NCBI RefSeq assembly: GCF_003688725.1 | Contig: NZ_REFP01000008.1 | Location: 186,001-250,000 of the forward strand | Origin: Thermoactinomyces vulgaris | Lineage (GTDB): Bacteria; Bacillota; Bacilli; Thermoactinomycetales; Thermoactinomycetaceae | Direction: 5' to 3' | Length of the DNA stretch: 64,000 bases | In this document: positions 3,269 to 37,072 of the stretch, piece by piece | Numbering within the stretch: the first letter of the stretch is position 1 | How the letters are laid out: every line of letters starts with the position of its first letter | Notes under the pieces: model-generated | What the model was told of the DNA's origin: nothing | What the model saw: the letters and a program-made list of their open reading frames with translations, nothing else | The model's database searches: none | Program-made: the position numbers and the translations under genes

Positions 3269-5071
3269 ATGAAACGAAATTGGCGAAGCATCACAGTCAG
3301 CTTGTTGATTTTGTCCATGTTTGCAGTGATTTTGGTTCGGTTGTACATGATTCAGATCGCCTCGGCGCGGTCTTTTGAAATTGTGAATAAACAAGTTGAT
3401 TTGGTCACCATGGCACAAACGCGGCAAAACAAAGAAATTGTGATTCAAAGCGGTCGCGGGGACATTTTGGATCGCCATCAAGAAACGCTGGTTGGAGGGA
3501 ACGATTGGCATTTGCTGATCTTTCCGCAAAGTGAAGAGCAGCTCAAGCTGCGCGAGGAGCAATTCAAACAGATTGCCGAATGGATCCATTATCCGTATGA
3601 GGCATTCCGACGCCAGTTGTTGCATCTGAAGTCTCCCGCGATCTTGTCAGGCATTCGCGGGGAAGAAATCACCCTGTCCCCCTTGGAGCGGGAGAGGATC
3701 GAAGCGATGAACATCCCGGGGGTGATGGTGGTTCAATCGGACCAGCGCATGACATTAAACCAAGTGGCGGAACAAGTGATCGGACAGATTGCCCGCAGTC
3801 CGCTCCTTTTGAAAAACCGGTATCAGGAGCAAGCCCAAAACGGAAATTGGCATCCCGAATCATTCATTGGAATCTCCGGGCTTGAACAAGCTTTTGAACC
3901 ATTTTTGCACGGAGAAGAAGAGCATCTTTTAATTTATACCAAGGCACGGACGGGAAAACCGTTAAACGGGGTGCAGATGAAACGAAAAGATATTCAACGC
4001 GGATCCGGAGACCGGCCCAAGACCCTTGTCACCACATTGGACAAAGAGATTCAGCAAATGGCGGAAAACCTGTTGCAAGAAGAAAGTGTGGATGACGGTG
4101 CAGTGGTGATTCAGGAGATCTCTTCCGGGGATATCCTGGCGATGGCCAGCCGGCCGAAAGGAAATTCGGAAAAGGAAGGGGAAAATCATTGGGAAAACCG
4201 GGCGGTGATGGAGGCAACACCCGGCTCGATCTTTAAGACTGTGGTTGCGGTGGCGGCTTTGGATCAGGGATTGGTCCGCCCGGACACCACTTTCCATTGC
4301 AAAGGAAAATTGGATCAATATCATTTGCGGGACAATGATCCCGAAGGGCACGGAAAAATTACGTTTGCCGAAGCTTATGCCAAGTCCTGCAATATTGTTT
4401 TTGGCACCGTGGCCAAAACACTCGGCCCTGAAAAACTGGAAGAGTATGCGAAGCGGTTGGGGCTCGGGCAAAAAGTGATCTGGAACGGCAAAGTGTTTCA
4501 CGACCCGTCGTTTGCGCAGTTGGCTGAAGAGCAAACGGGACTGATTTTTGCAGATTCCACGAATAAAAAAGATGAAGGGGTTTTGGTGCAAACCGGGATC
4601 GGACAGCGCGATGTCCGGATGACCCCGGTTCAGGCAACCAATATGATCACTTCGGTCTTCCATCAGGGAAAAACCATGGAACCGCGTCTGGTGAAGGAAA
4701 TCAAAGATGCTGAAGGGCGCATGTTATTTCGCTTTCGGGAGCAGACAATCGAAGGGGCCAAACCGCTCAAGCCGGAAACCGCCGCATCCGTCAAAGCGCT
4801 GATGCGTCAAGTCGTCACAGATGGCACGGCTTCATCGCTTAAAAATGCAACCTGGTCCCTGGCGGGGAAGACGGGAACGGCTCAGATCGGGGTGGACAAA
4901 GACCGGTACAACAAATGGATGATCGGTTTCGGCCCCGTGGAAACGCCGCGTTATTCGGTGGCCGTGTTGTTGCGTTCGGTGGATGATGCCGGTGATCAAA
5001 GAGCGATAAAAATCTTTGAAAAAGTGATGAACAATTTGGCTGATTTGGAAAAAAAGCGGGCAAAAGAGTGA
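3269..5071 (+). CDS. class B penicillin-binding protein (transpeptidase)
   Basis: A 600-residue membrane-anchored peptidoglycan transpeptidase. A single N-terminal membrane segment (about residues 7-27) is followed by a PBP-dimerisation region and the transpeptidase domain. The three active-site motifs are present: SIFK (S320), SCN (from S373) and KTGT (from K534). Size and place, close behind mltG in this cluster, resemble B. subtilis PbpI (YrrR), but I cannot separate this from other class B PBPs by sight. No PASTA domain is seen. The ATG at 3269 may be controlled by the hairpin just upstream. Confidence 0.9.
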   Translation: MKRNWRSITVSLLILSMFAVILVRLYMIQIASARSFEIVNKQVDLVTMAQTRQNKEIVIQSGRGDILDRHQETLVGGNDWHLLIFPQSEEQLKLREEQFKQIAEWIHYPYEAFRRQLLHLKSPAILSGIRGEEITLSPLERERIEAMNIPGVMVVQSDQRMTLNQVAEQVIGQIARSPLLLKNRYQEQAQNGNWHPESFIGISGLEQAFEPFLHGEEEHLLIYTKARTGKPLNGVQMKRKDIQRGSGDRPKTLVTTLDKEIQQMAENLLQEESVDDGAVVIQEISSGDILAMASRPKGNSEKEGENHWENRAVMEATPGSIFKTVVAVAALDQGLVRPDTTFHCKGKLDQYHLRDNDPEGHGKITFAEAYAKSCNIVFGTVAKTLGPEKLEEYAKRLGLGQKVIWNGKVFHDPSFAQLAEEQTGLIFADSTNKKDEGVLVQTGIGQRDVRMTPVQATNMITSVFHQGKTMEPRLVKEIKDAEGRMLFRFREQTIEGAKPLKPETAASVKALMRQVVTDGTASSLKNATWSLAGKTGTAQIGVDKDRYNKWMIGFGPVETPRYSVAVLLRSVDDAGDQRAIKIFEKVMNNLADLEKKRAKE

Positions 5072-5155
5072 AGGAATCCATAAAAATGCGGAAAAAAGAA
5101 TAATTATTTCCGCGGGCGATGTGAAAGTTATTGGTTTCACAAGATGTTCTTCTGG

Positions 5156-5184
5156 TTGTTTTGTGATTCCTATCCGATTATGAT
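5156..5184 (+). promoter_or_regulatory. sigma-A type promoter of the 5225 gene
   Basis: TTGTTT (5156-5161), a 17-base spacer and TATGAT (5179-5184) lie 40 bases before the start codon. A small GTGAAA/TTTCAC inverted repeat (5121-5140) lies just upstream. Confidence 0.55.
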
Positions 5185-5224
5185 ATTAGTAGTATTGTAG
5201 GTTTTAAATAAAGGAGTAGAAATC

Positions 5225-5551
5225 ATGAAAATCACCGTTAATTTATCAAAGGCCGAACTTGATTTAATTGAAGAAGCTCTTTTGCAATATCAAAATCTTT
5301 TGCTCAAATCAAAAGATCAAGATGAAATGGTCAATGACGAGTTAAAATTGGTGCGCCGCGTTTTGGAAGAGTTTGGGATGGAAGATTTGGAGGAGAATTC
5401 TCAGGATCAACCACAGTCCCAGCAAAAGGCATTGCCGATGCCTCCGGGCGGAAACCAATATCAGCCGCCGCAGGGCCAGTACGCTTCTCCCAATCAATAC
5501 CATGGTCCCAATACCTTTGTAGCTCCCAATCAATATCCATTTTCTCGTTAA
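5225..5551 (+). CDS. hypothetical protein with Pro/Gln/Tyr-rich tail
   Basis: A 108-residue protein I do not recognise. Residues 1-55 are predicted helical and charged (SKAELDLIEEALLQYQNLLL). The second half is a low-complexity tail rich in Pro, Gln, Asn and Tyr with the repeated element PNQY (three times), probably disordered. It has its own promoter, an AAAGGAG ribosome binding site nine bases upstream of the ATG, and a terminator behind it. No signal peptide or membrane segment is seen. Confidence 0.75.
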   Translation: MKITVNLSKAELDLIEEALLQYQNLLLKSKDQDEMVNDELKLVRRVLEEFGMEDLEENSQDQPQSQQKALPMPPGGNQYQPPQGQYASPNQYHGPNTFVAPNQYPFSR

Positions 5552-5567
5552 ATGGATTCAGTAAATC

Positions 5568-5606
5568 AGCGCCTCTGATTTTCATACTCTTCAGATGGCG
5601 CTTTTA
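5568..5606 (+). terminator. terminator after the 5225 gene
   Basis: AGCGCC-T-CTGA (from 5568) pairs with TCAG-AT-GGCGCT (to 5602) around a twelve-base loop, followed by TTTTA. The short T run makes it moderate in strength. Confidence 0.6.
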
Positions 5607-5676
5607 TATTGGATGCCGGATCATGTTATGATGTACATGAACAAAGATGATTGGTGCATATGCCAAAGGGAGAAAG

Positions 5677-5958
5677 ATGATGAAGGAACAAGAAGTGAAA
5701 AATATTTTAAAAAACTTGAAAGTCGGGGAATCGACTTATTTTTCGACGTCGAAGGATGAACATAAGATTGAAGTGGAAAGAGTGTTCAAAGGTTTGGACG
5801 AAGGTTGGATGGTGATTTATCAGGGAGAGCGCAAGGTTTTTAGTGATTTGGATGAAGCGGCCCGCTTTTTGTCCCAACATTGGGAAGTGAATATCAAAAA
5901 GCGTATGCAAAACCAATATCAGGAAATGAATGATTTGATTGATTTGGGAGAATACTGA
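5677..5958 (+). CDS. hypothetical small protein
   Basis: A 93-residue soluble protein I cannot assign. Beta-type segments (GESTYFSTSKDE, GWMVIYQGERKVF) are followed by a helix (DLDEAARFLSQHWEVNIKKR). The ATG at 5677 follows AAAGGGAGA; an adjacent ATG at 5680 is equally possible, and an ATG at 5647 lacks a ribosome binding site. It is a single-gene unit with a terminator behind it. Nothing in the sequence links it to the neighbouring transporter. Confidence 0.7.
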   Translation: MMKEQEVKNILKNLKVGESTYFSTSKDEHKIEVERVFKGLDEGWMVIYQGERKVFSDLDEAARFLSQHWEVNIKKRMQNQYQEMNDLIDLGEY

Positions 5959-5963
5959 TCTTG

Positions 5964-6002
5964 AGAGGATTGGGGAAACAGATTCCTCAATCCTTTTTTT
6001 TA
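5964..6002 (+). terminator. terminator after the 5677 gene
   Basis: AGGATTG (5966-5972) pairs with CAATCCT (5988-5994), extended by GGAA/TTCC with one mismatch, and runs into eight T residues. Confidence 0.8.
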
Positions 6003-6106
6003 TTCTCTTTGAAAAAACACGGTTTAAAAATCGAAAAACCGGGGAATATATCTTAATTATGAAACCGGAGCATTTTTACCAGTCTGTAAATAGGAAGGAT
6101 TGAAGC

Positions 6107-7642
6107 ATGAAAAAATTTACCAACGTCTTCATTATTTCAGTGATTATTTCCTTTGTCTTTATTTTGTGGGGGGGTGTCGCCCCAAAACATATTCTGACGG
6201 TCATGAACGATATCCAGACTTTTTTGCAGGATAAGTTTGGTTGGTTCTATTTGTTTTCCACCACGGCCTTTTTGATCTTTTCTTTATTCCTCATTTTCAG
6301 CCGCTATGGAAATATTCGACTCGGAAAGGATACCGATCGTCCCGAATTTGGCACCATTTCATGGTTTGCCATGTTATTCAGTGCCGGAATGGGGATCGGA
6401 CTGGTCTTTTGGGGAACAGCTGAGCCGTTGTCCCATCTTTATCAGCCGATCTTTGCCCAACCAGGTTCCGGTACCGCCGCCAATGATGCGATGCGTTATT
6501 CCTTCTTCCACTGGGGATTGCATCCATGGGGAATTTATGCCCTTTTGGGATTGGCGCTTGCTTATGCAAACTTTCGAAAAGATGCTCCGGGATTGATCAG
6601 CCACACCTTTTATCCACTGTTGAAAGAGAAAGTGAAGGGACCGGTCGGGAAAACAATTGATATTATTTCCGTTTATGCCACGGTGTTCGGCGTGGCCACT
6701 TCCTTGGGATTGGGGGCCATTCAGATCGGCGGAGGGCTTTCTTTTGTGACGCCGCTGGAAAATAACATCCTCACCCAATTCATCGCCATTGTGATTGTGA
6801 CCGGCTTGTTTATTCTTTCGACCACCACCGGGCTGAATAAAGGGATCAAGTACTTGAGCAATATCAATATTCTGATTGCGGTATTGTTGATGTTTTTTGT
6901 TTTGTTCACGGGACCGACCAAGTTTATCATGAATTTGTTCACATCCACGTTGGGGGCGTATATTCAGGAGTTGCCCCGGATGAGTTTCTATTTGGGGCCG
7001 TTTAATCCGCAGGCTAATGAATGGATTCAAAGTTGGACGATCTTTTACTGGGCATGGTGGATTGCTTGGGCTCCGTTTGTCGGAACGTTTATTGCCCGCA
7101 TTTCAAAAGGGCGCACGGTGCGGGAATTTGTGATCGGCGTCCTCTTGGTGCCCACCTTTTTCGGGGCATTTTGGTTCAGCGTTTTCGGAGGAACCGGACT
7201 TCACATGGAGATGTCGGATGGTATTCCGCTTTTTGAACAGATGAGCGAGCAGGGAACCGAAGTGGCTCTGTTCTCGATGCTTTCCCATTTGCCGTTGAGC
7301 GGGATTATGATTGTGCTTGCCGTGATTTTGATCAGCACGTTTTTCATTACTTCCGCCGACTCGGCAACGTTTGTGCTGGGAATGCAGACGACGGACGGGA
7401 GTTTAAACCCTTCCAATACCGTCAAATGGATTTGGGGACTCATTATTTCCGCTTCGGCTTTGATCTTGCTTTACTCCGGCGGATTGGAAGGATTGCAGAT
7501 GGCATCGATTATTGCTGCTTTTCCATTTGCCTTTATCCTGATCGGTGTGGCGGTTTCCTTGTTGAAGGCGTTCCGCCAGGAAGTGCCCAAAAGAAGAAGA
7601 GCGGGAACCCCGAAAGAGCCGGGATCGGCCAAAGCGAAGTAA
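6107..7642 (+). CDS. BCCT family betaine/carnitine/choline transporter
   Basis: A 511-residue transporter of the BCCT family, which takes up trimethylammonium osmolytes such as glycine betaine, mostly by sodium symport. About twelve membrane segments are visible. Family marks are AGMGIGLVFWGTAEPL (the glycine-rich unwound helix) and the aromatic YWAWWIAWAPFVG before ARISKGRTVREF. It most resembles OpuD-type betaine carriers, but substrate cannot be settled by eye. The last 25 residues are basic and hydrophilic. The gene stands alone and has its own terminator. Confidence 0.92.
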   Translation: MKKFTNVFIISVIISFVFILWGGVAPKHILTVMNDIQTFLQDKFGWFYLFSTTAFLIFSLFLIFSRYGNIRLGKDTDRPEFGTISWFAMLFSAGMGIGLVFWGTAEPLSHLYQPIFAQPGSGTAANDAMRYSFFHWGLHPWGIYALLGLALAYANFRKDAPGLISHTFYPLLKEKVKGPVGKTIDIISVYATVFGVATSLGLGAIQIGGGLSFVTPLENNILTQFIAIVIVTGLFILSTTTGLNKGIKYLSNINILIAVLLMFFVLFTGPTKFIMNLFTSTLGAYIQELPRMSFYLGPFNPQANEWIQSWTIFYWAWWIAWAPFVGTFIARISKGRTVREFVIGVLLVPTFFGAFWFSVFGGTGLHMEMSDGIPLFEQMSEQGTEVALFSMLSHLPLSGIMIVLAVILISTFFITSADSATFVLGMQTTDGSLNPSNTVKWIWGLIISASALILLYSGGLEGLQMASIIAAFPFAFILIGVAVSLLKAFRQEVPKRRRAGTPKEPGSAKAK

Positions 7643-7826: not shown

Positions 7827-9032
7827 GTGCAGAAAAAAGTTTGGTTATCTTTGATGGGGGCCGCATTTTTAATGGCCACTTCTGCCGTCGGACCCGGGTT
7901 TTTGACACAAACTTCCGTATTCACGGCCCAATTTGGAGCCAGTTTCGGGTTTGTGATCTTGGCTTCCGTTTTGCTCGACATTGGAGCCCAATTAAATATT
8001 TGGCGGGTTATTGTTGTATCGAAGATGCGGGCGCAGGATATTGCCCATGCGGTCCGGCCGGGGCTCGGCCACGTTTTGTCGTTTTTGGTGGTGTCAGGAG
8101 GATTGGCTTTTAACATTGGCAATGTGGCCGGTGCCGGATTGGGGTTTGAAGTGTTGTTTGGTGTGGATGCGGTATGGGGAGCGGTCATCAGCGGGTTGAT
8201 TGCCGTGATGGTTTTTTTGTCCAAAGAAGCCGGGAAAGTGATGGACCGGTTTGCCGTGTTGTTGGGATTTGTGATGATTGGGCTGACGCTCTGGGTGGCA
8301 GTGGGATCGCATCCTCCCCTGGGTGAAGCTGCGGTGCGCTCGCTGGTTCCCGATGTGCCCGTTGACGGGTGGAATGCATTTTTTATGGCCATTGTGACCG
8401 TGGTCGGCGGATCAGTTGGCGGATACATTACCTTTGCAGGAGGGCACCGCCTTTTAGATGCCGGATTGAAAGGAACGGAAGCGTTGCCGGAAACCAACCG
8501 AAGTTCGGTTTCCGGAATCATCATCACATCGGTCATGCGTTTGGTCTTGTTTTTGGCGACATTGGGCGTGGTTTCTGCGGGGGGAACATTAAGCGAAAGC
8601 AATCCGGCGGCTTCGGTGTTTCAGCTGGCCACGGGAGAGACAGGCTATCAATTGTTCGGTTTGGTCATGTGGGCGGCCGCCATTACGTCGGTGGTGGGAG
8701 CGGCATATACTTCCGTCTCCTTTATTCGTACTTGGCATGAAAAGATCGACCGTCATCACCGGTGGTGGACCGTTTGCTTCATCTTGTTGTCCACAGCGGT
8801 TTTTGTGGTGGTGGGAAAACCGGTGAAAATGTTGATTTTGGTGGGGACGTTAAATGGTTTTATTCTGCCACTTTCACTGGCCATCATCCTGTTTGCCGCC
8901 CGCCGGAAGGAGATTGTCGGTGAATACAGGCATCCGCTTTGGCTGACGGTCTTTGGCATCCTGGTCGCTGTGATCATGGCAACCATGGGATTGGTGGTCA
9001 GTGTGGAAGAGTTGCCGAAGTTGTGGTCATAA
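7827..9032 (+). CDS. NRAMP-like membrane transporter without the canonical metal motif
   Basis: A 401-residue polytopic membrane protein (about eleven helices) of the YcsG-like branch of the NRAMP/APC fold. The first helix reads AVGPGFLTQT where true NRAMP metal transporters have DPGN. The segment matching helix 6 reads GGSVGGYITFAGGHRLL and lacks the usual metal-coordinating residues. A divalent-metal role is therefore doubtful. B. subtilis ycsG lies beside 5-oxoprolinase genes; here no such genes are near. Translation starts at GTG 7827 behind AAAGGCGG. It ends at a terminator shared with purU. Confidence 0.8.
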   Translation: MQKKVWLSLMGAAFLMATSAVGPGFLTQTSVFTAQFGASFGFVILASVLLDIGAQLNIWRVIVVSKMRAQDIAHAVRPGLGHVLSFLVVSGGLAFNIGNVAGAGLGFEVLFGVDAVWGAVISGLIAVMVFLSKEAGKVMDRFAVLLGFVMIGLTLWVAVGSHPPLGEAAVRSLVPDVPVDGWNAFFMAIVTVVGGSVGGYITFAGGHRLLDAGLKGTEALPETNRSSVSGIIITSVMRLVLFLATLGVVSAGGTLSESNPAASVFQLATGETGYQLFGLVMWAAAITSVVGAAYTSVSFIRTWHEKIDRHHRWWTVCFILLSTAVFVVVGKPVKMLILVGTLNGFILPLSLAIILFAARRKEIVGEYRHPLWLTVFGILVAVIMATMGLVVSVEELPKLWS

Positions 9033-9035
9033 AGC

Positions 9036-9063
9036 AAAAAATCCCCTGTAAAGGGGATTTTTT
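9036..9063. terminator. bidirectional terminator between the NRAMP-like gene and purU
   Basis: A perfect stem AAAAAATCCCC / GGGGATTTTTT with a six-base loop lies between two convergent genes. It gives a T tract on either strand. Confidence 0.9.
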
Positions 9064-9949
9064 ATTCAAACACGATGGTTTTGTGATTGTGAACGATAAT
9101 CTGGTCATTGATGTGCCATTGGACGGCTCTGGCCAAAACGATCCGCTCCAGATCGCGTCCGATTCGTTTTAAATCGGCGACTTGATGCCGGTGATTGACA
9201 CGGCTCACATCTTGTTCGATAATGGGACCTTCATCCAAATCTTCCGTGACATAGTGTGCTGTGGCCCCGATGAGCTTCACCCCGCGGTTGAACGCTTGGT
9301 GATACGGTTTCCCCCCGATAAAGGCCGGCAAAAACGAGTGGTGGATGTTAATGATTTGATTCGGATAACGGTCGATGATTTTACCAGGGATAATTTGCAT
9401 ATAACGAGCAAGGATAAGAGTATCCACTTGGTGTTTTTGAAGCAGTTCCAGATGGATGTCTGCGGCTTCTTCACGGTTTTCTTTGGTCACCGGGACATGA
9501 TAATAAGGAATGTTGTGGGGTGTAACCAGATATTTCATGTCCGGGTGATTGGAAACCACCATGACAATATCGGCATTCAATTCTTTGATACTCCAACGCC
9601 ACAACAGTTCCCGCAGACAATGGTCTTCCTTTGAAACGAAGACCGCCAGCTTTTTTCTTTCGGACGGATGCGTGATTTTCCAATCCATCTGAAACGGCTC
9701 TGCAATCAATGAAAATTGTTGCCGAAGTTCATCAATCCGTCCGGTCAGGTTGTCCATCAGAAACTGGACCCGCATAAAAAAGTGTCCGCTTTCCGGATTG
9801 GTTGAAAATTGATCGGAGTGCAAGATGTTGGCTCCGTTTTCATAAAGAAATTGTGTGATTGCAGCAATGATTCCTTGCTTTTCAGGGCAGGAAACGATCA
9901 GAGCCCCTTGGTTCATATTGACAGCAGTTTTGTTCGACGTTTGATTCAT
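9062..9949 (-). CDS. purU: formyltetrahydrofolate deformylase
   Basis: A 295-residue enzyme that hydrolyses 10-formyl-THF to THF and formate, balancing the one-carbon pool and supplying formate for purine synthesis. An ACT domain (residues about 15-95, starting LIVSCPEKQGI) precedes the formyltransferase fold. Catalytic marks are NIHHSFLPAF and GATAHYVTEDLDEGPII. The ATG at 9949 lies behind AAAGGAGAG; an internal Met at residue 12 is the only alternative. It is transcribed alone from a likely promoter at 9991-10020. Confidence 0.95.
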   Translation of the reverse strand: MNQTSNKTAVNMNQGALIVSCPEKQGIIAAITQFLYENGANILHSDQFSTNPESGHFFMRVQFLMDNLTGRIDELRQQFSLIAEPFQMDWKITHPSERKKLAVFVSKEDHCLRELLWRWSIKELNADIVMVVSNHPDMKYLVTPHNIPYYHVPVTKENREEAADIHLELLQKHQVDTLILARYMQIIPGKIIDRYPNQIINIHHSFLPAFIGGKPYHQAFNRGVKLIGATAHYVTEDLDEGPIIEQDVSRVNHRHQVADLKRIGRDLERIVLARAVQWHINDQIIVHNHKTIVFE

Positions 9950-27418: not shown

Positions 27419-27448
27419 ATAAAAAAGACCAGTGAAACACTGGTCTTT
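27419..27448 (-). terminator. terminator of the SUKH gene (minus strand)
   Basis: AAAGACCAGTG and CACTGGTCTTT form a perfect stem. On the minus strand it begins inside the stop codon and is followed by T residues. Confidence 0.88.
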
Positions 27449-27920
27449 ACATACTGTCAATATTTTCAGCCGGGTGATATAAAGCGTTAATAAACTCTGT
27501 AAAGGAAGAGCCGAATATCTGAACACGATTGTTTAATTTATTTTTATCAAAAATAGCTTCCAATGCATCGTTTTTATCTTTCCAAAGAATCAAGGGATTC
27601 AGGTTTCCGGGACGGTAGTAAAAACAGTAATGGTTTAATGACCCGTCAAAGGCGAATGGCACGAGAAGCCCGAATTCTTTAAACTCTTCTTCCCCAAAAT
27701 AGAGGGCTTCAAATTCTTCAATAATGGAATCTGGTGGGTAAAACGCATCAAAATGATAATGTTTCCCATCGACGAGGAGATACGTATTACCATCTTCCGG
27801 GGCAGCATATTGTTGCACCCAATGAATATAGTCTTTGGGAAGTTTCACACCAATTTCTTCCTCAATTTCGGCAAATTGCTCGTCGGGGATTTTTTCTTCT
27901 TGCTCAGCCCAAGAAATCAA
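27447..27920 (-). CDS. SMI1/KNR4 (SUKH) domain protein, probable immunity protein
   Basis: A 157-residue acidic cytosolic protein of the SUKH superfamily. The helix-strand start FAEIEEEIGVKLPKDYIHW is the classic SMI1/KNR4 mark, followed by LLVPFAFDGSLNHYCF. Many SUKH proteins neutralise toxins of contact-dependent or polymorphic systems. No toxin gene is adjacent. It starts at TTG 27920, nine bases behind AAAGGAG. A second SUKH-superfamily member (syd-like) lies 1.7 kb away. Confidence 0.85.
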   Translation of the reverse strand: MISWAEQEEKIPDEQFAEIEEEIGVKLPKDYIHWVQQYAAPEDGNTYLLVDGKHYHFDAFYPPDSIIEEFEALYFGEEEFKEFGLLVPFAFDGSLNHYCFYYRPGNLNPLILWKDKNDALEAIFDKNKLNNRVQIFGSSFTEFINALYHPAENIDSM

Positions 27921-29968: not shown

Positions 29969-30080
29969 ACAACACTTCGACCTCCAACCACGATTGGTTT
30001 TGCAGAGTGAAAAAATTATTTGTTCGTATTAATTTTTGAATTTATAATGATAATAATAACTTTAATGAGGGGGGATTATT

Positions 30081-30443
30081 ATGAGTGAGCAAAACAACTC
30101 ACAATTTCACTTTGACCGTATTACTGGACAAATTAATATTGGACAAGGAAAATCGAAAAATATTAACATGTATAATGCTGTTAGTACGGAACAAATCAAT
30201 AATGTAAAACAGTTGGTTGAACGACTATTAAGCGAGATTAATGATATAAAGGAATTAAATGATGCGGACAAAGAACAAATTAAATCTTTAGTTAAAATAG
30301 TGGAATCCCAAATGGAAACGGGGAAAGTAGATCAGGGGATTGTTGCAATTCTTAATGAGAAGTTGCAAAATATTTCTAATTTATTTGAGGCAGGTTCATT
30401 TCTAAACAGTACAATTGATACCTTCATGAACTTATTAAAGTAG
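30081..30443 (+). CDS. small helical protein paired with the STAND NTPase
   Basis: A 120-residue protein at the left edge of an AT-rich insert. Residues 9-30 form a short strand-like motif (FDRITGQINIGQGKSKNI); the rest is three or four charged helices ending in a hydrophobic one (NSTIDTFMNLLK). Short proteins of this build occur next to STAND NTPases in bacterial conflict systems; I cannot name the family. The same GQ-I/L-NI motif recurs at the start of the next gene. The ATG follows a GAGGGGGG stretch. The gap to the next start is 22 bases. Confidence 0.75.
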   Translation: MSEQNNSQFHFDRITGQINIGQGKSKNINMYNAVSTEQINNVKQLVERLLSEINDIKELNDADKEQIKSLVKIVESQMETGKVDQGIVAILNEKLQNISNLFEAGSFLNSTIDTFMNLLK

Positions 30444-30465
30444 TAAGAGAAAGGAGAATTTATGA

Positions 30466-33400
30466 GTGAATAACGATAGTAAAAGTATTTTTAATATATC
30501 AAGTTTTGAGGGACAGCTAAATATTACTCAAGATGATGCGCAAACTTACGGGATTATGGGATATGAAGAAAGAAAAGGAATAAAATGTAAAGGGGTTACA
30601 AATCAAATTTTCCAAGGCAGAAGATTATTTTCGATCATCGGGATTTGTTTTTACAGAAAATACAAGAAAGTATGGTTATAGGGGAATTAAAATTCGATTT
30701 GGATAAAAAAATTGATAAACTCTTACTGATTTGTGATCGGTTGGTGGCCGGTTATGGTGAGGATCCTTATTTTCATAAAATAAAACATATTCCAATGTTG
30801 TTAGAGCAAAAGGGATCTGATTTGATGTCCTGTTATCAGTGGAGCGATATCATCTTGGAATGGTTGAGGTTAATTTTCTTTGTTATCAATTCCAAAACAT
30901 CAATTAATAAATCGAAAGTGAAAAAAATGTCTTTTAGTGAATTGTTGGTTAATTTGAAGTTAGAAAGACAATATTGCTTTCAATCATTTCTTCGATCAAA
31001 ACATATGCATAACATTTCAAATCTAGTTCCTAATGATTGGGAACGAATAGGACTTGTTTCATTATTAACACCTGTATACATCTATAAGAAGAAGCTTACC
31101 CAGTACTTACGAGGCTGTATCTTGAATTCTATTGAAAATTCAAATTTAACCCCATTACTTGGATCGATTAGAGATGAGCGAAACCGGCATATAAAACAAT
31201 TTGCAGCTCGTGAAGAAATTATTGGTAAATTATTTGAGATTATGACAAGCGATTAGACAGGATTTAGTCGTTATTTTATGTTAGTTGGCGATGAGGGGAC
31301 AGGTAAGACAGCATTGTGTAGCAAATTATCAGAACAATTTGCTTCTATGTATACTAGTTTTGGGCCCAGGGAAATTGAGGTGAAGAAATATGCTCCATGG
31401 ATACCTGGAGTTATCATGCATTACGGAAAACAATCCAATCAGCCTTATGAAATTGTTCTCTCTCTAATCGAACAAGCTAATACATTATTGCTACATCCTA
31501 TACAGACTAAAGAAATCAAGGAAGTTGGAGAAATGAAAGAAATCGAGCACAAGCTGATTGAAGAGAAGATTGGACTACAAGATAAAGGATTTGATTTTGA
31601 AAAATTAATGACTATCCGACGAAATAATTTGGTTCAAAGCAATGAGAAGTTAAGTCGTTATTTATACCAAGCTTTAGATCAATTGTCTAAAGAACTTGGT
31701 CATGTTGTAGTTTTGATAGATGCATTAGATGAAATTAGTCAGGATGGTGAGACGCTTTCGTTTTTACCTAAGTCATTGCCTGATGGGGTAGTTTTATTAA
31801 TGACTACACGTCCGGGGCAAGTAGAGAAATGGGTATGTTTAAATCGTCCTGTAGAAACATTCACGCTTAATCACTTGACTCGGGAAGAGATACCTTTATT
31901 AACTGGTATACCTGATGAGGGAAGTGAAGAACGGTCATTTAATGATAAAGTAATGGAAGCGAGTGATGGATGGCCTTTATTGGTGTCTGCGATTTCTAAA
32001 GAAGTGAGAAGATGTAACTTTCAAATAGATAAGGTTGAAATTTATGAAAGTAGAAGTGTTTTTTTAGATCGGATGGCAGAAAATTGGCAATCCTATTCGA
32101 TTTCAGCTAAAGATAATGAGATCTTAGAAGAACTTTTACCTTTATTGGCTTTGTTTGAACCAGTTGCACCACTTCATTTTAGTGATATCCAGAGCTACTT
32201 GCACTATCATGGTTTTTATTTAAATAAACCGCGCTTGATTAGAGTATTAAAATTAGTGGAAGAGCAGATTGAGGGTTTAAAGTCAAAAACTTGGGTTAAA
32301 TTGAGGTTCAAAGTTTTTGCAGAGTATGTACGAGAGGAATACTATAGCCCAATTGATATGGAAGAAGTATTTATTAATATATTAGATTGGATAGCTTCAC
32401 TAAAAAATGTTACAGAAAAGAAAATGGAATTAATAGAAAAATTTTTCATCTTTTATACTGACAAAAAAAATTGCGAACAGTTGGGTGTCGAAATAGATTT
32501 ATTACAACAGTTAAAGGAAAGAGGTTGCTCACAATTATTATTTAATTTATCTGATTGTCTTATTGGAGAAAGCAAAACAGTAGGCAAAAAATGTTTACTA
32601 TTTGCGATTGATTTAGAAAATGTGGATGCAATGAGGAAGTTAGCGTGGCATGTAATTAATGATGAAGATTTTGGTATTGATAAAACATATGGTGAAAATC
32701 TATTGCGTCAGGCGATTGATTTGGGTTGCATTAAATCTATGTATCTATTAGGAGTGTGCTTGATTGATGGAAATCTTGGAAGAATTGATGTCTTGGAAGG
32801 GGAACAATGGTTAAGAAAAGCAGCTGAAAATGGTGAGGTTCAAGCGATGTTATCATTAGGGATAAGATTTTTAACAGGGAATGGATTTAAACAAAACTCT
32901 AAAGAAGGTGAGATGTGGTTAATTAAAGCGACACAAACAGGAGATTTACAGGCGAAACGAATCTATGGAGGAATTTTGTTTGAAGGGGAGTATTTGAATG
33001 ATAGAGAAAGAGGAAAAAAATTGTTAAGAGAGGCGGCAAAAGAAGGTGATCAAAGAGCGATGTTAAGATTGGGAGTTAATCTCGTCGATAATTATATTGA
33101 TAAGGATGAATTGGAAGAGGGAGAAATGTGGTTGAGAAGAGCCGCTCAGCAAGGAATAGGAAATGCAATTTTGGCTTTAGCTGGTAAGTTATACGAAGGA
33201 GTAAATTTAAAAACTCAATGGAAAGAACTCGAAGTTTGGTTGAATAAAATAAAAAGAATACCAAATATAAAAGAAATTTTAATGGGGGTTGGGGCCGTTT
33301 ACTATAAAGCTAATAATTATCTATTGGCATCAAAATATTTTTTGGAATGTGCTGAAAGCCAAAATTATGGTTTAGCATATAACCTTCTGGCATATATGAA

Positions 33401-33791
33401 ACGTAGAGAAGAAATTCCTCAGGAAAATGATAAATACTCATTTGATGAATTGATTAGGTTTTCTTTAGAAAGTGAAGAAGAAAAAGAAGAAGCGTTATTA
33501 TATGCCACCATAAATAATATTCTTAATCAAGTTGCATCTAACACTGATAAAGAATCTTGGTATCAATGTGATCAAACTATTGCGGAGAAAGGAAATAAAC
33601 TTTCAATAGTAACTGAATGGTGGTATAACTTGGTTGACGAAGCTGATCCAGAACGTGATCTGGTTATTGGATGGTTGGTTCGTCATAAAATTATCGATGA
33701 CCCCGATGGAATGTCCATTAAAGAGCGGATGAAGAGAGCACGGGAGGGCGGTTGGAAAGTTCCAGAGTGGATGGATGATATGAGAAAATAA
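30466..33791 (+). pseudogene. STAND-type NTPase with C-terminal Sel1-like repeats, disrupted
   Basis: Three open stretches form one gene of about 1,105 codons. The first (GTG 30466 to about 30590) has the strand motif FEGQLNITQ. The frame then shifts by one base near 30590. The second stretch, to the TAG at 31254-31256, is a helical region ending REEIIGKLFEIMTSD. The third, in the same frame, continues TGFSRYFMLVGDEGTGKT (Walker A 31287-31310), then VVVLIDALDE (Walker B), LLMTTRPG and, from about 32550, six or so Sel1/TPR-like repeats. This layout matches antiviral STAND sensors of the Avs kind. No Shine-Dalgarno precedes ATG 31278. Confidence 0.8.
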
Positions 33792-34040
33792 TGGAGTAAT
33801 TAAAGGGGTATCTTGATGAAGCTATGTATTGAAGAGGGAAGCAAAATATGTTTAATGTAGATTTTATTAATTGTAGATGAACTCTCCCTCAGCTAAAATA
33901 TTTTCAATTTCACATGAGGTTACATACTCTTATTGTATAACTAAAGTTCAATTTGCTAATTATAATGAAATTTGTTGATTCTGAGTCTCTTGATTTGTCA
34001 AAAAGGTGACCCCAAATTGCCCGAGGGAATGTTTCATAGA
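33792..34040. other. right flank of the AT-rich insert
   Basis: About 250 bases without a convincing gene. Composition changes from AT-rich to host-like near 33990. I saw no direct repeat matching the left edge (about 30010-30080), no tRNA end and no integrase, so the mode of insertion is not visible. Confidence 0.4.
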
Positions 34041-36269: not shown

Positions 36270-36599
36270 TTATGACAAAAAGGTATGGATTAATTCAATG
36301 CAATCATTAACCACGTTTTCGGGTGCCCGGCCTTTGATCGTAAATTGCCGTGCCTGCCAATCTAGGCTTTTGACTTGGTCCGCCAGAATGACGCCTTGAA
36401 TGGGCAGACCGTCGGGCAATTTCACTTCAAATGGGTAGCCTTTTTCTTTGCGGGTGATGGGGCAGACCACAGCGAATTTGGTCACTGCGTTGAATGATTG
36501 GGGGGATAAGACAATGGCGGGGCGTCTTCCGGCCTGTTCATGCCCGGCTTGCGGATGGAAGCTGACATAAACAAGATCCCCGCGATCCGGTACGGCCAT
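36270..36599 (-). CDS. mazF: MazF/PemK family mRNA endonuclease toxin
   Basis: A 109-residue toxin that cuts mRNA at short recognition sites. Family marks are VPDRGDLVYVSFHP at the start, GHEQAGRRPAIVLSPQSFN (with the conserved Arg-Pro-Ala-Val/Ile strand), VVCPITRKEKGYPFEV and VILADQVKSLDW. Length is normal. It is translated directly behind the antitoxin, with a one-base overlap of stop and start. Its substrate specificity cannot be read from the sequence. Confidence 0.94.
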   Translation of the reverse strand: MAVPDRGDLVYVSFHPQAGHEQAGRRPAIVLSPQSFNAVTKFAVVCPITRKEKGYPFEVKLPDGLPIQGVILADQVKSLDWQARQFTIKGRAPENVVNDCIELIHTFLS

Positions 36600-36841
36600 T
36601 AAATGAGCTCATTCCCTTCGGTTCCAAGCTGAATTTCTTCATGGCGGTTTTCCGGCGTGACTTTGGCCAGAAGTTCATCCAATGTGGGTTTTTTCTTCTT
36701 TGGAACCAATTTAATCTCTTGGTTTTCCACTTTCATTTCCAATTCGGAGCCTTGCTTGATGGACAACATCTCGGCAATATGGCTGGGGATCCGAATGGCC
36801 AGGCTGTTTCCCCATTTACGGACTTGTGTCGTCATCTTCAT
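36599..36841 (-). CDS. mazE: MazE-type AbrB-fold antitoxin
   Basis: An 80-residue antitoxin. The swapped-hairpin DNA-binding domain shows TTQVRKWGNSLAIRIPSHIA and LSIKQGSELEMKVEN. The C-terminal 30 residues (TLDELLAKVTPENRHEE) form the flexible tail that blocks MazF. Translation starts at ATG 36841 close behind AGGAGG; the ATG two codons later has wider spacing and is also possible. As in other mazEF pairs it should repress its own promoter; a palindrome lies 60 bases upstream. Confidence 0.93.
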   Translation of the reverse strand: MKMTTQVRKWGNSLAIRIPSHIAEMLSIKQGSELEMKVENQEIKLVPKKKKPTLDELLAKVTPENRHEEIQLGTEGNELI

Positions 36842-36891
36842 GATTCCTCCTTGATTTTCCTCCTCTTTCATTTTATCACCTCCGGGATGCC

Positions 36892-36914
36892 TTGTATACA
36901 CATTGTATCTACAA
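36892..36914 (-). promoter_or_regulatory. likely MazE operator upstream of mazEF
   Basis: Overlapping palindromic elements TTGTATaC and TTGTATcTACAA (the latter 36903-36914) lie 51-73 bases before mazE. AT-rich palindromes of this kind are common autoregulatory sites of AbrB-fold antitoxins. The binding itself is inference. Confidence 0.45.
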
Positions 36915-37072
36915 TGCGGTTGGATTATGCATTTATCTTTCAGAATGGCAAACGGGAAAACCGGCTTTAAAATCCATCCAAAATATCCGGGGCAAAAAGG
37001 AGGAAATGGGAGGGACGAAATCAAAAAGGGAGGAAGAATTCAGCTGAGGTTTGAACAGCGGGGGAGAGAAAA

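What the first reader, a model, noticed from the sequence alone, without database searches (positions are those of the whole stretch)
30010..33990. AT-rich insert encoding a two-gene STAND NTPase conflict system with a Sel1-repeat sensor
Seen: about 4 kb with far lower GC than its flanks holds a 120-residue helical protein and a gene of about 1,105 codons with P-loop (GDEGTGKT), IDALDE Walker B and a C-terminal array of Sel1/TPR-like repeats. Known: antiviral STAND proteins such as Avs have an N-terminal effector, a central NTPase and a C-terminal TPR-like sensor. Inference: this is an Avs-like system in which Sel1 repeats sense the target and the small gene is an effector or regulator. I do not recognise the N-terminal 265 residues as any known effector.
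Basis: partly seen in the sequence, partly recalled or inferred. Interest (0 to 1): 0.75.

Follow-up and report, generated by a model that had tools for sequence, protein, structure and literature searches.

The report
Sensor–effector pair joined by matching tags
An AT-rich island holds a now-broken bacterial immune-receptor gene and a small helical partner gene that carry the same kind of short tag at their starts, and related small genes carry tags matched to other neighbours, such as a known anti-phage helicase, so one small protein seems to be plugged into several defence machines by tag matching.

Summary
The sequence facts hold: 30010-33990 is 33% GC against 48% around it, with an intact 120-aa gene followed by a STAND/NACHT-Sel1 gene that is broken here by a frame change and an in-frame TAG. 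The small protein is a ~25-residue N/Q/G-rich motif (predicted beta) plus a four-helix bundle, and the STAND starts with the same kind of motif. Relatives of the small gene (24 of 42 genomes of the order, 5 only in part) sit beside STANDs, Mokosh-type helicases (MkoC), Cas4-like or membrane proteins, and the neighbour usually carries a motif matching that locus's small gene (19 pairs, permutation 0 of 20,000). Of 17 MkoC helicases, 14 have a separate small gene, 2 are fused to it, 1 has neither; the motif tail stands where canonical MkoC has its PLD nuclease. Best reading: a sensor tagged for homotypic recruitment of a small helical effector, working like BASS/EAD systems but with the motif N-terminal on the effector and with non-NLR partners. 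Beta-assembly, toxicity and defence are inferred. The STAND's own N-terminal domain looks HEPN-like in some relatives; motif-bearing members have changed or lost that site.

The parts
30081..30443 (+). small partner gene, 120 aa: N-terminal motif + four-helix bundle (similar to the C-terminal half of PADLOC PDC-M14B)
   Evidence: (PDC-M14B E 3.2e-12)
30105..30173 (+). paired motif in the small protein (residues 9-31)
   Evidence: 9.3 bits to a motif profile built from other loci; 6 of 2,000 shuffles as high
30186..30437 (+). four-helix bundle of the small protein, with hydrophobic C-terminal segment
30466..30681 (+). 5' piece of the broken STAND gene (GTG start; only its first part is in register with relatives)
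30487..30552 (+). paired motif at the N-terminus of the STAND protein
   Evidence: 12.1 bits to a motif profile built from other loci; 0 of 2,000 shuffles as high
30645..31256 (+). second piece of the STAND gene: helical N-terminal domain, ending at an in-frame TAG
   Evidence: fold from relative L125
30993..31010 (+). RSKHMH, at the place of the RNxxxH of relatives (HEPN-like Rx4H)
   Evidence: motif definition from PMC3710099
31278..32567 (+). STAND/NACHT NTPase region (end approximate); Walker A 31287-31310, Walker B IDALDE 31716-31733
32535..33257 (+). Sel1 repeat array (putative sensor; ends approximate)
33690..33788 (+). C-terminal tail DPDGxSxxxRxxxAxxGGWxVPEW, shared with relatives in Chloroflexales (L125) and, less closely, Opitutales (L128)

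Best explanation
This is a two-gene NLR-type conflict module. A STAND NTPase with a Sel1-repeat C-terminus is the sensor. When triggered it oligomerises (inferred from STAND precedent) and brings together the short beta motifs at its N-termini. These motifs recruit and template the matching motif at the N-terminus of the small protein (inferred; homotypic, probably amyloid/beta-solenoid-like), which clusters and switches on its four-helix bundle with a hydrophobic C-terminal segment, the likely cell-damaging effector (inferred). The same small effector family is plugged by the same kind of matched motif onto Mokosh-type helicases (in place of their PLD nuclease), Cas4-like nucleases and membrane proteins. 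Shown by computation: the motif in both genes, its locus-specific matching, its co-occurrence with the small gene, and the fusions. Inferred: assembly, direction of signalling, toxicity, phage defence. In this genome the STAND gene is broken, so the copy is probably inactive.
For: Small-gene relatives are found in 24 of 42 genomes of the order at E<=0.001 (in 5 of the 24 only the C-terminal part matches). All-neighbour scan of 25 loci: in 16 the small gene's N-terminal region beats all 100 shuffles against its neighbours. 19 pairs: within-locus score mean 59.8 against 29.5 between loci; summed score 1136 against 591 +/- 48 (maximum 841) in 20,000 permutations; 11 MkoC loci alone 0 of 20,000, 7 dereplicated ones 5 of 20,000. 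From the helicase side: L177-L179 have a small gene and a tail motif, each pair above all 1,000 shuffles; two of these small genes were not listed. Of 17 essentially full-length MkoC helicases in the order's 42 genomes, 14 have a separate small gene, 2 are fused to the small domain and 1 (G201) lacks both tail and small gene. MkoC of G264 ends in a PLD-like domain (L181, by eye); PLD-like domain listed for Mokosh I and II in PMC10952713 (passage). Both window genes match a motif profile built only from other loci (0 and 6 of 2,000 shuffles). Among the three systems of this genome each small protein scores highest with its own partner (39, 50, 64 against at most 34). Motif region of 17 small proteins: 26% N/Q and 15% charged, against 11% and 28% in the helical part.
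Against: The window's own pair is weak by pairwise score (15 of 100 shuffles as high); the claim rests on the profile and the relatives. In 9 of 25 loci shuffles do reach the observed score (two of these were faulty inputs). In 5 of 19 rows another locus's partner scores higher, and the L177 and L179 small proteins score slightly to clearly higher with the L178 tail than with their own. 7 of 10 STAND loci have neither small gene nor motif. A more distant MkoC-like helicase in the same family (G012, L199) keeps a PLD-like end, and four others in the class have neither PLD nor tail. The helical bundle has no significant fold match (best Foldseek E 0.49) and its hydrophobic segment reaches a TM-like value in only 1 of 23 members. 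The 19 pairs were picked by eye from the listing. No assay of assembly, toxicity or defence exists here.
Confidence: 0.6

Rival explanations
1. The N-terminal helical domain of the STAND protein is itself the effector (a HEPN-type RNase), and the small protein is a bound regulator or inhibitor held by the motif.
For: RN-x3-H (Rx4H with N after R) in 6 of 13 aligned STANDs; in the L125 model R154 ends a helix and the H lies in the following loop, which is low-confidence (pLDDT<50 at 155-163), as described for HEPN (PMC3710099 passages); the window has RSKHMH.
Against: Motif-bearing G013 and G022 STANDs have lost the site; no Pfam HEPN match; the N-terminal domain was not folded or searched alone. 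Fusion of the small domain to the helicase in 2 of 17 MkoC loci, and its place where PLD sits in other MkoC, fit an effector better than an inhibitor.
Confidence: 0.17
2. The motif pair forms a simple one-to-one beta-complementation or scaffold, without amyloid-like templating; the small protein is an oligomerising adaptor rather than a toxin.
For: All matching data are equally explained; the bundle is generic and mostly without a TM-like helix; partners such as Cas4-like proteins may carry their own effector activity (label by eye).
Against: Composition is N/Q-rich and charge-poor and the genetic layout resembles BASS signalosomes (PMC7889193).
Confidence: 0.25
3. The STAND-Sel1 family is a housekeeping or developmental regulator of these bacteria, not a defence system.
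For: In G020 and G022 motif-less members keep the same chromosomal neighbours (by eye).
Against: Patchy distribution, distant relatives in Chloroflexales and Opitutales, Avs3/NLR-like ATPase, and association of the same small family with the anti-phage helicase MkoC.
Confidence: 0.1
4. The motif similarity is a by-product of composition or common descent and has no function.
For: The motif is short and N/Q/G-rich; some between-locus scores are high among related loci.
Against: Composition-preserving shuffles fail in most loci; matching is locus-specific across unrelated partner folds and at opposite ends of partners; the one MkoC of 17 without the tail also lacks the small gene.
Confidence: 0.05

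Closest known systems
BASS bacterial amyloid signalling motifs (NLR + Bell-domain effector; PMC7889193, PMC8086366, PMC12261475)
   Same: Two adjacent genes, NLR with an N-terminal ~25-residue motif, small helical protein carrying a matching motif, motif type differing between loci.
   Different: Motif at the N-terminus of the small protein rather than the C-terminus; the helical part was not shown to be Bell; partners include a helicase, Cas4-like proteins and membrane proteins; membership in BASS1-10 not tested because the profiles were not at hand.
EAD-coupled conflict systems (PMC7159879)
   Same: A shared small module on the core protein and on a neighbouring effector, with neighbouring copies more alike than others.
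   Different: EADs are described there as small alpha-helical or alpha+beta domains; here the shared part is a short motif predicted as beta.
Avs / bacterial NACHT anti-phage STAND NTPases
   Same: Central STAND ATPase (Avs3 is the top VIA-align match for relative L125), repeat C-terminus.
   Different: Sel1 repeats, no Avs effector domain seen, no phage target known; PADLOC match to Avs only marginal (Avs1b E 1.4e-4 for relative L048).
Mokosh (MkoC)
   Same: Relatives of the small gene sit beside MkoC-type helicases (PDLC03924, E 1.5e-294 and 6.5e-239 for the two scanned; more).
   Different: In 16 of 17 of these the C-terminal end is a motif tail (or fused small domain) rather than PLD; the window itself has no helicase.
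PADLOC PDC-M14 (candidate defence)
   Same: The small protein corresponds to the C-terminal half of PDC-M14B, which also contains a motif.
   Different: PDC-M14B has an extra N-terminal ~150 aa and a partner M14A (zinc-ribbon by eye); the window's small protein lacks the extra part.

Membership tests
STAND/NACHT NTPase | Walker A/B and NACHT-type ATPase with NLR-like fold | tested here: met
   GDEGTGKT and IDALDE; NACHT 26.6 bits against cut-off 26.7, NPHP3_N above its cut-off; fold matches to CED-4, Apaf-1, plant NLRs and Avs3 for relative L125
Avs (antiviral STAND) | sequence match to Avs models | tested here: inconclusive
   no Avs model for the window pieces at E<=1; marginal Avs1b match for relative L048
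Avs (antiviral STAND) | recognition of a phage protein by the C-terminal repeats | not testable with these tools
   needs phage assay
BASS-type amyloid signalosome | matching short motif on NLR and neighbouring small helical protein | tested here: met
   for the family; the window's pair alone is weak
BASS-type amyloid signalosome | motif at C-terminus of the effector | tested here: not met
   motif is N-terminal in the small protein; so filed as works-like, not as member
BASS-type amyloid signalosome | motif forms amyloid and templates its partner | not testable with these tools
   needs peptides
Bell domain | sequence or fold match of the helical part | not tested
   no Bell profile at hand; fold search gave only generic four-helix bundles
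PDC-M14 (PADLOC candidate) | PDC-M14B over its full length | tested here: not met
   only the C-terminal part of M14B matches the 120-aa protein; the neighbours were scanned with Pfam, not with PADLOC
HEPN RNase (N-terminal STAND domain) | Rx4-6H with polar residue after R, at the end of helix 3 | tested here: inconclusive
   6 of 13 aligned members have RNxxxH, the window has RSKHMH; model position fits but the loop is low-confidence; no profile match, fold not searched alone
Mokosh type II | MkoC helicase with PLD | tested here: not met
   the only MkoC match of this genome is elsewhere, at C3, and it carries a motif tail; tail, fused small domain or nothing in the order's 17

The most novel reading that the evidence does not exclude
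A swappable small effector with an N-terminal self-assembling tag serves several unrelated defence machines (STAND sensors, Mokosh helicases, Cas4-like nucleases) in one bacterial order, each locus having evolved its own matched tag so that parallel alarm channels in one cell stay insulated. This would be amyloid-type immune signalling outside NLRs.
Probability: 0.5. Interest if true: 0.87.

Novelty: new variant of a known kind. Interest (0 to 1): 0.72.

Why it matters
PMC7889193 (passages seen) asks whether bacteria have signalling amyloids in pathways not dependent on NLRs. The loci here give a direct place to test it: the same tagged small protein is paired with NLR-like and non-NLR machines, with natural matched and mismatched tags in a single genome. 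It also offers a function for a candidate defence family (PDC-M14B) and suggests how Mokosh helicases without the PLD nuclease may act.

Tried and rejected
Rejected: plain LuxR/MalT activator (no HTH in the Pfam scans); a Sel1 protein without ATPase; chance motif; integrated element with clear ends (no repeats bracketing it, no tRNA, no empty site in the same-genus genome). Led nowhere: plasmid search with the small gene gave no match, and with the STAND 88 records, the 20 shown matching mostly the Sel1 part; NCBIfam gave nothing useful; PDB sequence searches gave nothing convincing; fold search of the bundle gave generic bundles only; with the whole L125 model no HEPN structure was among the rows shown, which excludes nothing because the ATPase fills the list. 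The first scan of named genomes with the window protein found no relative.

Papers: no paper with both 'Mokosh' and 'amyloid' and none with 'PDC-M14'. Among the rows listed (capped lists; for example 15 of 24, 12 of 19,616, 12 of 29 and 10 of 221) I saw no title or abstract start describing this pairing; these are not full readings. Passages only were seen of PMC8086366, PMC7159879, PMC8195603, PMC7889193, PMC3710099, PMC10952713 and PMC12926258; of PMC12261475 the first of six parts. The original BASS paper was not seen.

Faults and drops in my own counts: locus L110 was represented by a wrong second hit (corrected), and L108 was missed because the helicase tail lies in another frame there. 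L107, L118 and L119 show no matching neighbour and L112 is a contig fragment; all four are counted among the 25. Loci whose small domain is in a protein over 200 aa (PDC-M14B types, fusions, L064) were left out. L062 (G007) is cut by the contig end: it is among the 11 MkoC pairs but not among the 17 MkoC; the fragment in G190 is left out too. The motif profile was made from ten loci of the GQ-like type chosen by me, cut with a pattern.
Full report
What is in the window. The stretch 30010-33990 has 33.0% GC against 47.9% elsewhere in the window; none of 105 other segments of equal length falls below 39.0%. It holds a 120-aa gene (30081-30443) and, 22 bp further on the same strand, a STAND gene that is broken: its first part is read in one frame from a GTG at 30466, the rest in another, and a TAG at 31254-31256 interrupts the second frame before an intact 837-aa ORF with P-loop, Walker B and Sel1 repeats. 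Genes in the flanks include a SUKH/SMI1 protein, a MazEF pair and a separate Sel1 protein. No repeats, tRNA or empty site define the ends.

The large gene. Relatives of the ATPase part are few: in the family (23 genomes) clear ones lie in G009, G013, G020 and G022; a 200-genome draw of the class gave one essentially full-length match, the window itself, and weak short matches in 8 other genomes; a scan of named species gave four loci, two of them on contigs of the same lengths as those of G022 and G009, and two from Chloroflexales and Opitutales. The records with G009's and G022's contig lengths are Paenactinomyces guangxiensis and a Thermoactinomycetaceae MAG, which places the window in that family (inference). 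The ATPase of the intact Chloroflexales relative (L125; model mean pLDDT 63.8 from six rows) resembles NLRs: Avs3 Z 14.9, NRC3, Apaf-1, CED-4. Its N-terminal domain is helical; 6 of 13 aligned members have RN-x3-H, in L125 at the end of a helix and in a low-confidence loop, which fits the description of HEPN RNases (PMC3710099 passages). The motif-bearing members have RSKHMH (window), an RN without H (G013) or lack the site (two in G022); two motif-less members and the Opitutales one lack it as well, so the link is suggestive only, and no Pfam match backs it.

The small gene. The model (two-row alignment) has two low-confidence strands (9-12, 17-20) and four confident helices. The helical part matches no known fold significantly. 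By sequence it corresponds to the C-terminal half of PADLOC's PDC-M14B (E 3.2e-12). A profile finds relatives in 24 of 42 genomes of the order (in 5 of them only the C-terminal part) but in only 8 of 398 of a phylum draw, own genome included.

The key observation. The N-terminal stretch of most small proteins resembles a stretch in a neighbouring gene, and the type differs from locus to locus. Partners are STAND proteins (motif at the N-terminus: window, G013, two in G022), MkoC-type helicases (C-terminus), Cas4-like proteins (C-terminus; the Cas4 label is by eye from recalled CP/Cys motifs, no profile matched), two small apparently membrane proteins in L063 and a 434-aa protein in L058. Examples: L106 SATYVEGDHI / DSTYVEGDNT; L115 GSVGGHILLGDFSNNQGNINS / GNVGGSILIGDFSNNKGAINS; L117 QLNIASDLATIRA / QVNIASDQATIHA (partner / small). 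An all-neighbour scan without picking partners gave 16 of 25 loci above all 100 shuffles; the window gave 15 of 100 shuffles at least as high. For 19 pairs picked from the listing, within-locus scores average 59.8 against 29.5 between loci, 0 of 20,000 permutations reach the sum, and the own partner scores best in 14 of 19 rows. Within the 11 MkoC loci 0 of 20,000; with 7 dereplicated ones 5 of 20,000. A profile made from ten other loci recognises the window's STAND N-terminus (12.1 bits, 0 of 2,000 shuffles) and small protein (9.3 bits, 6 of 2,000).

A check from the other side. Starting from the helicase, 17 of 42 genomes have an essentially full-length MkoC, one of them in two pieces. Most had already been met from the small gene; four loci (G001, G002, G015 C1, G201) had not been read, and G002 and G015 C1 had no small gene listed there. 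Reading them found a small gene and a tail motif in G001, G002 and G015, each pair above all 1,000 shuffles, although the L177 and L179 small proteins score higher with the L178 tail (50 and 57) than with their own (48 and 44). G201 has neither tail nor small gene. In G170 the helicase tail lies in a shifted frame but looks alike (by eye). Sum: 14 separate, 2 fused (G077, G092), 1 with neither. In the class 35 of 299 genomes have an MkoC match at E<=1e-60; of eight such loci read, four end in a PLD-like HxK...GS.NW stretch (L181, L198, L199, L201, by eye) and four (L182, L187-L189) have neither PLD nor tail. L199 is G012, of the window's own family, so a more distant PLD-bearing form exists there too. 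PMC10952713 lists a PLD-like domain for Mokosh type I and II (passage). So in the 17 closer helicases the tail plus small gene stands where other MkoC have the nuclease; it is not the only alternative to it.

Mechanism. STAND activation by oligomerisation and the Sel1 array as sensor are inferred from the known family. The motif pairing is the best-supported link between the two genes. That it is amyloid-like rests on composition (26% N/Q, 15% charged), length and layout. That the bundle is the effector rests on the Mokosh arrangement, the fusions and its hydrophobic C-terminal segment. Direction and toxicity are untested.

Relation to what is known. BASS motifs join the C-terminus of Bell-type effectors to the N-terminus of NLRs (PMC7889193 and PMC8086366 passages, PMC12261475 first part). 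EADs follow the same principle with small domains, and neighbouring copies are more alike (PMC7159879 passages). The present family works like these, but the motif is on the other end of the small protein and the partners include non-NLR machines. My searches did not find this pairing in print, within an open-access library and capped listings only.

Verdict. The more interesting finding is the matched-tag module of which the pair is one case.

Noticed in passing
L067 (G000:C3:310000-325000), 3963-7523: The window's own genome has a second tagged small gene beside an MkoC-type helicase, with a different motif type (TQIGDNRNATM / SQFGMNENATL).
   Followed up: yes
L117 (G000:C1:241000-255000), 5422-7400: A third tagged small gene in the same genome, beside a Cas4-like 509-aa protein (by eye) with a closely matching motif; a RAMP/Cmr1-like ORF may lie nearby on the other strand (8742-9806; by eye, no profile run).
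   Followed up: partly
L049 and L052 (G022 C11, G020 C3): Motif-less STAND-Sel1 genes sit after a leuS-like gene (by eye) in two genomes of one genus, and tandem STAND pairs in L053/L054 share a downstream gene: looks like vertical inheritance.
   Followed up: partly
window 33690-33788; L125, L128: C-terminal tail DPDGxSxxxRxxxAxxGGWxVPEW shared between this STAND and relatives in Chloroflexales and Opitutales; function unknown.
   Followed up: no
window 36270-37024 and 27447-27920: MazEF toxin-antitoxin pair and a SUKH/SMI1 protein lie in the flanks of the AT-rich stretch.
   Followed up: partly
L063, 5563-7080: A tagged small gene followed by two small hydrophobic proteins, both ending in a similar motif: a three-protein set.
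   Followed up: partly
L060, L061, L120-L123: PDC-M14B-like proteins contain a motif internally, between an N-terminal part and the bundle, beside a zinc-ribbon-like M14A-like gene; in L061 a TIR-like gene follows (labels partly by eye; PADLOC run on L060 and L061 only).
   Followed up: partly
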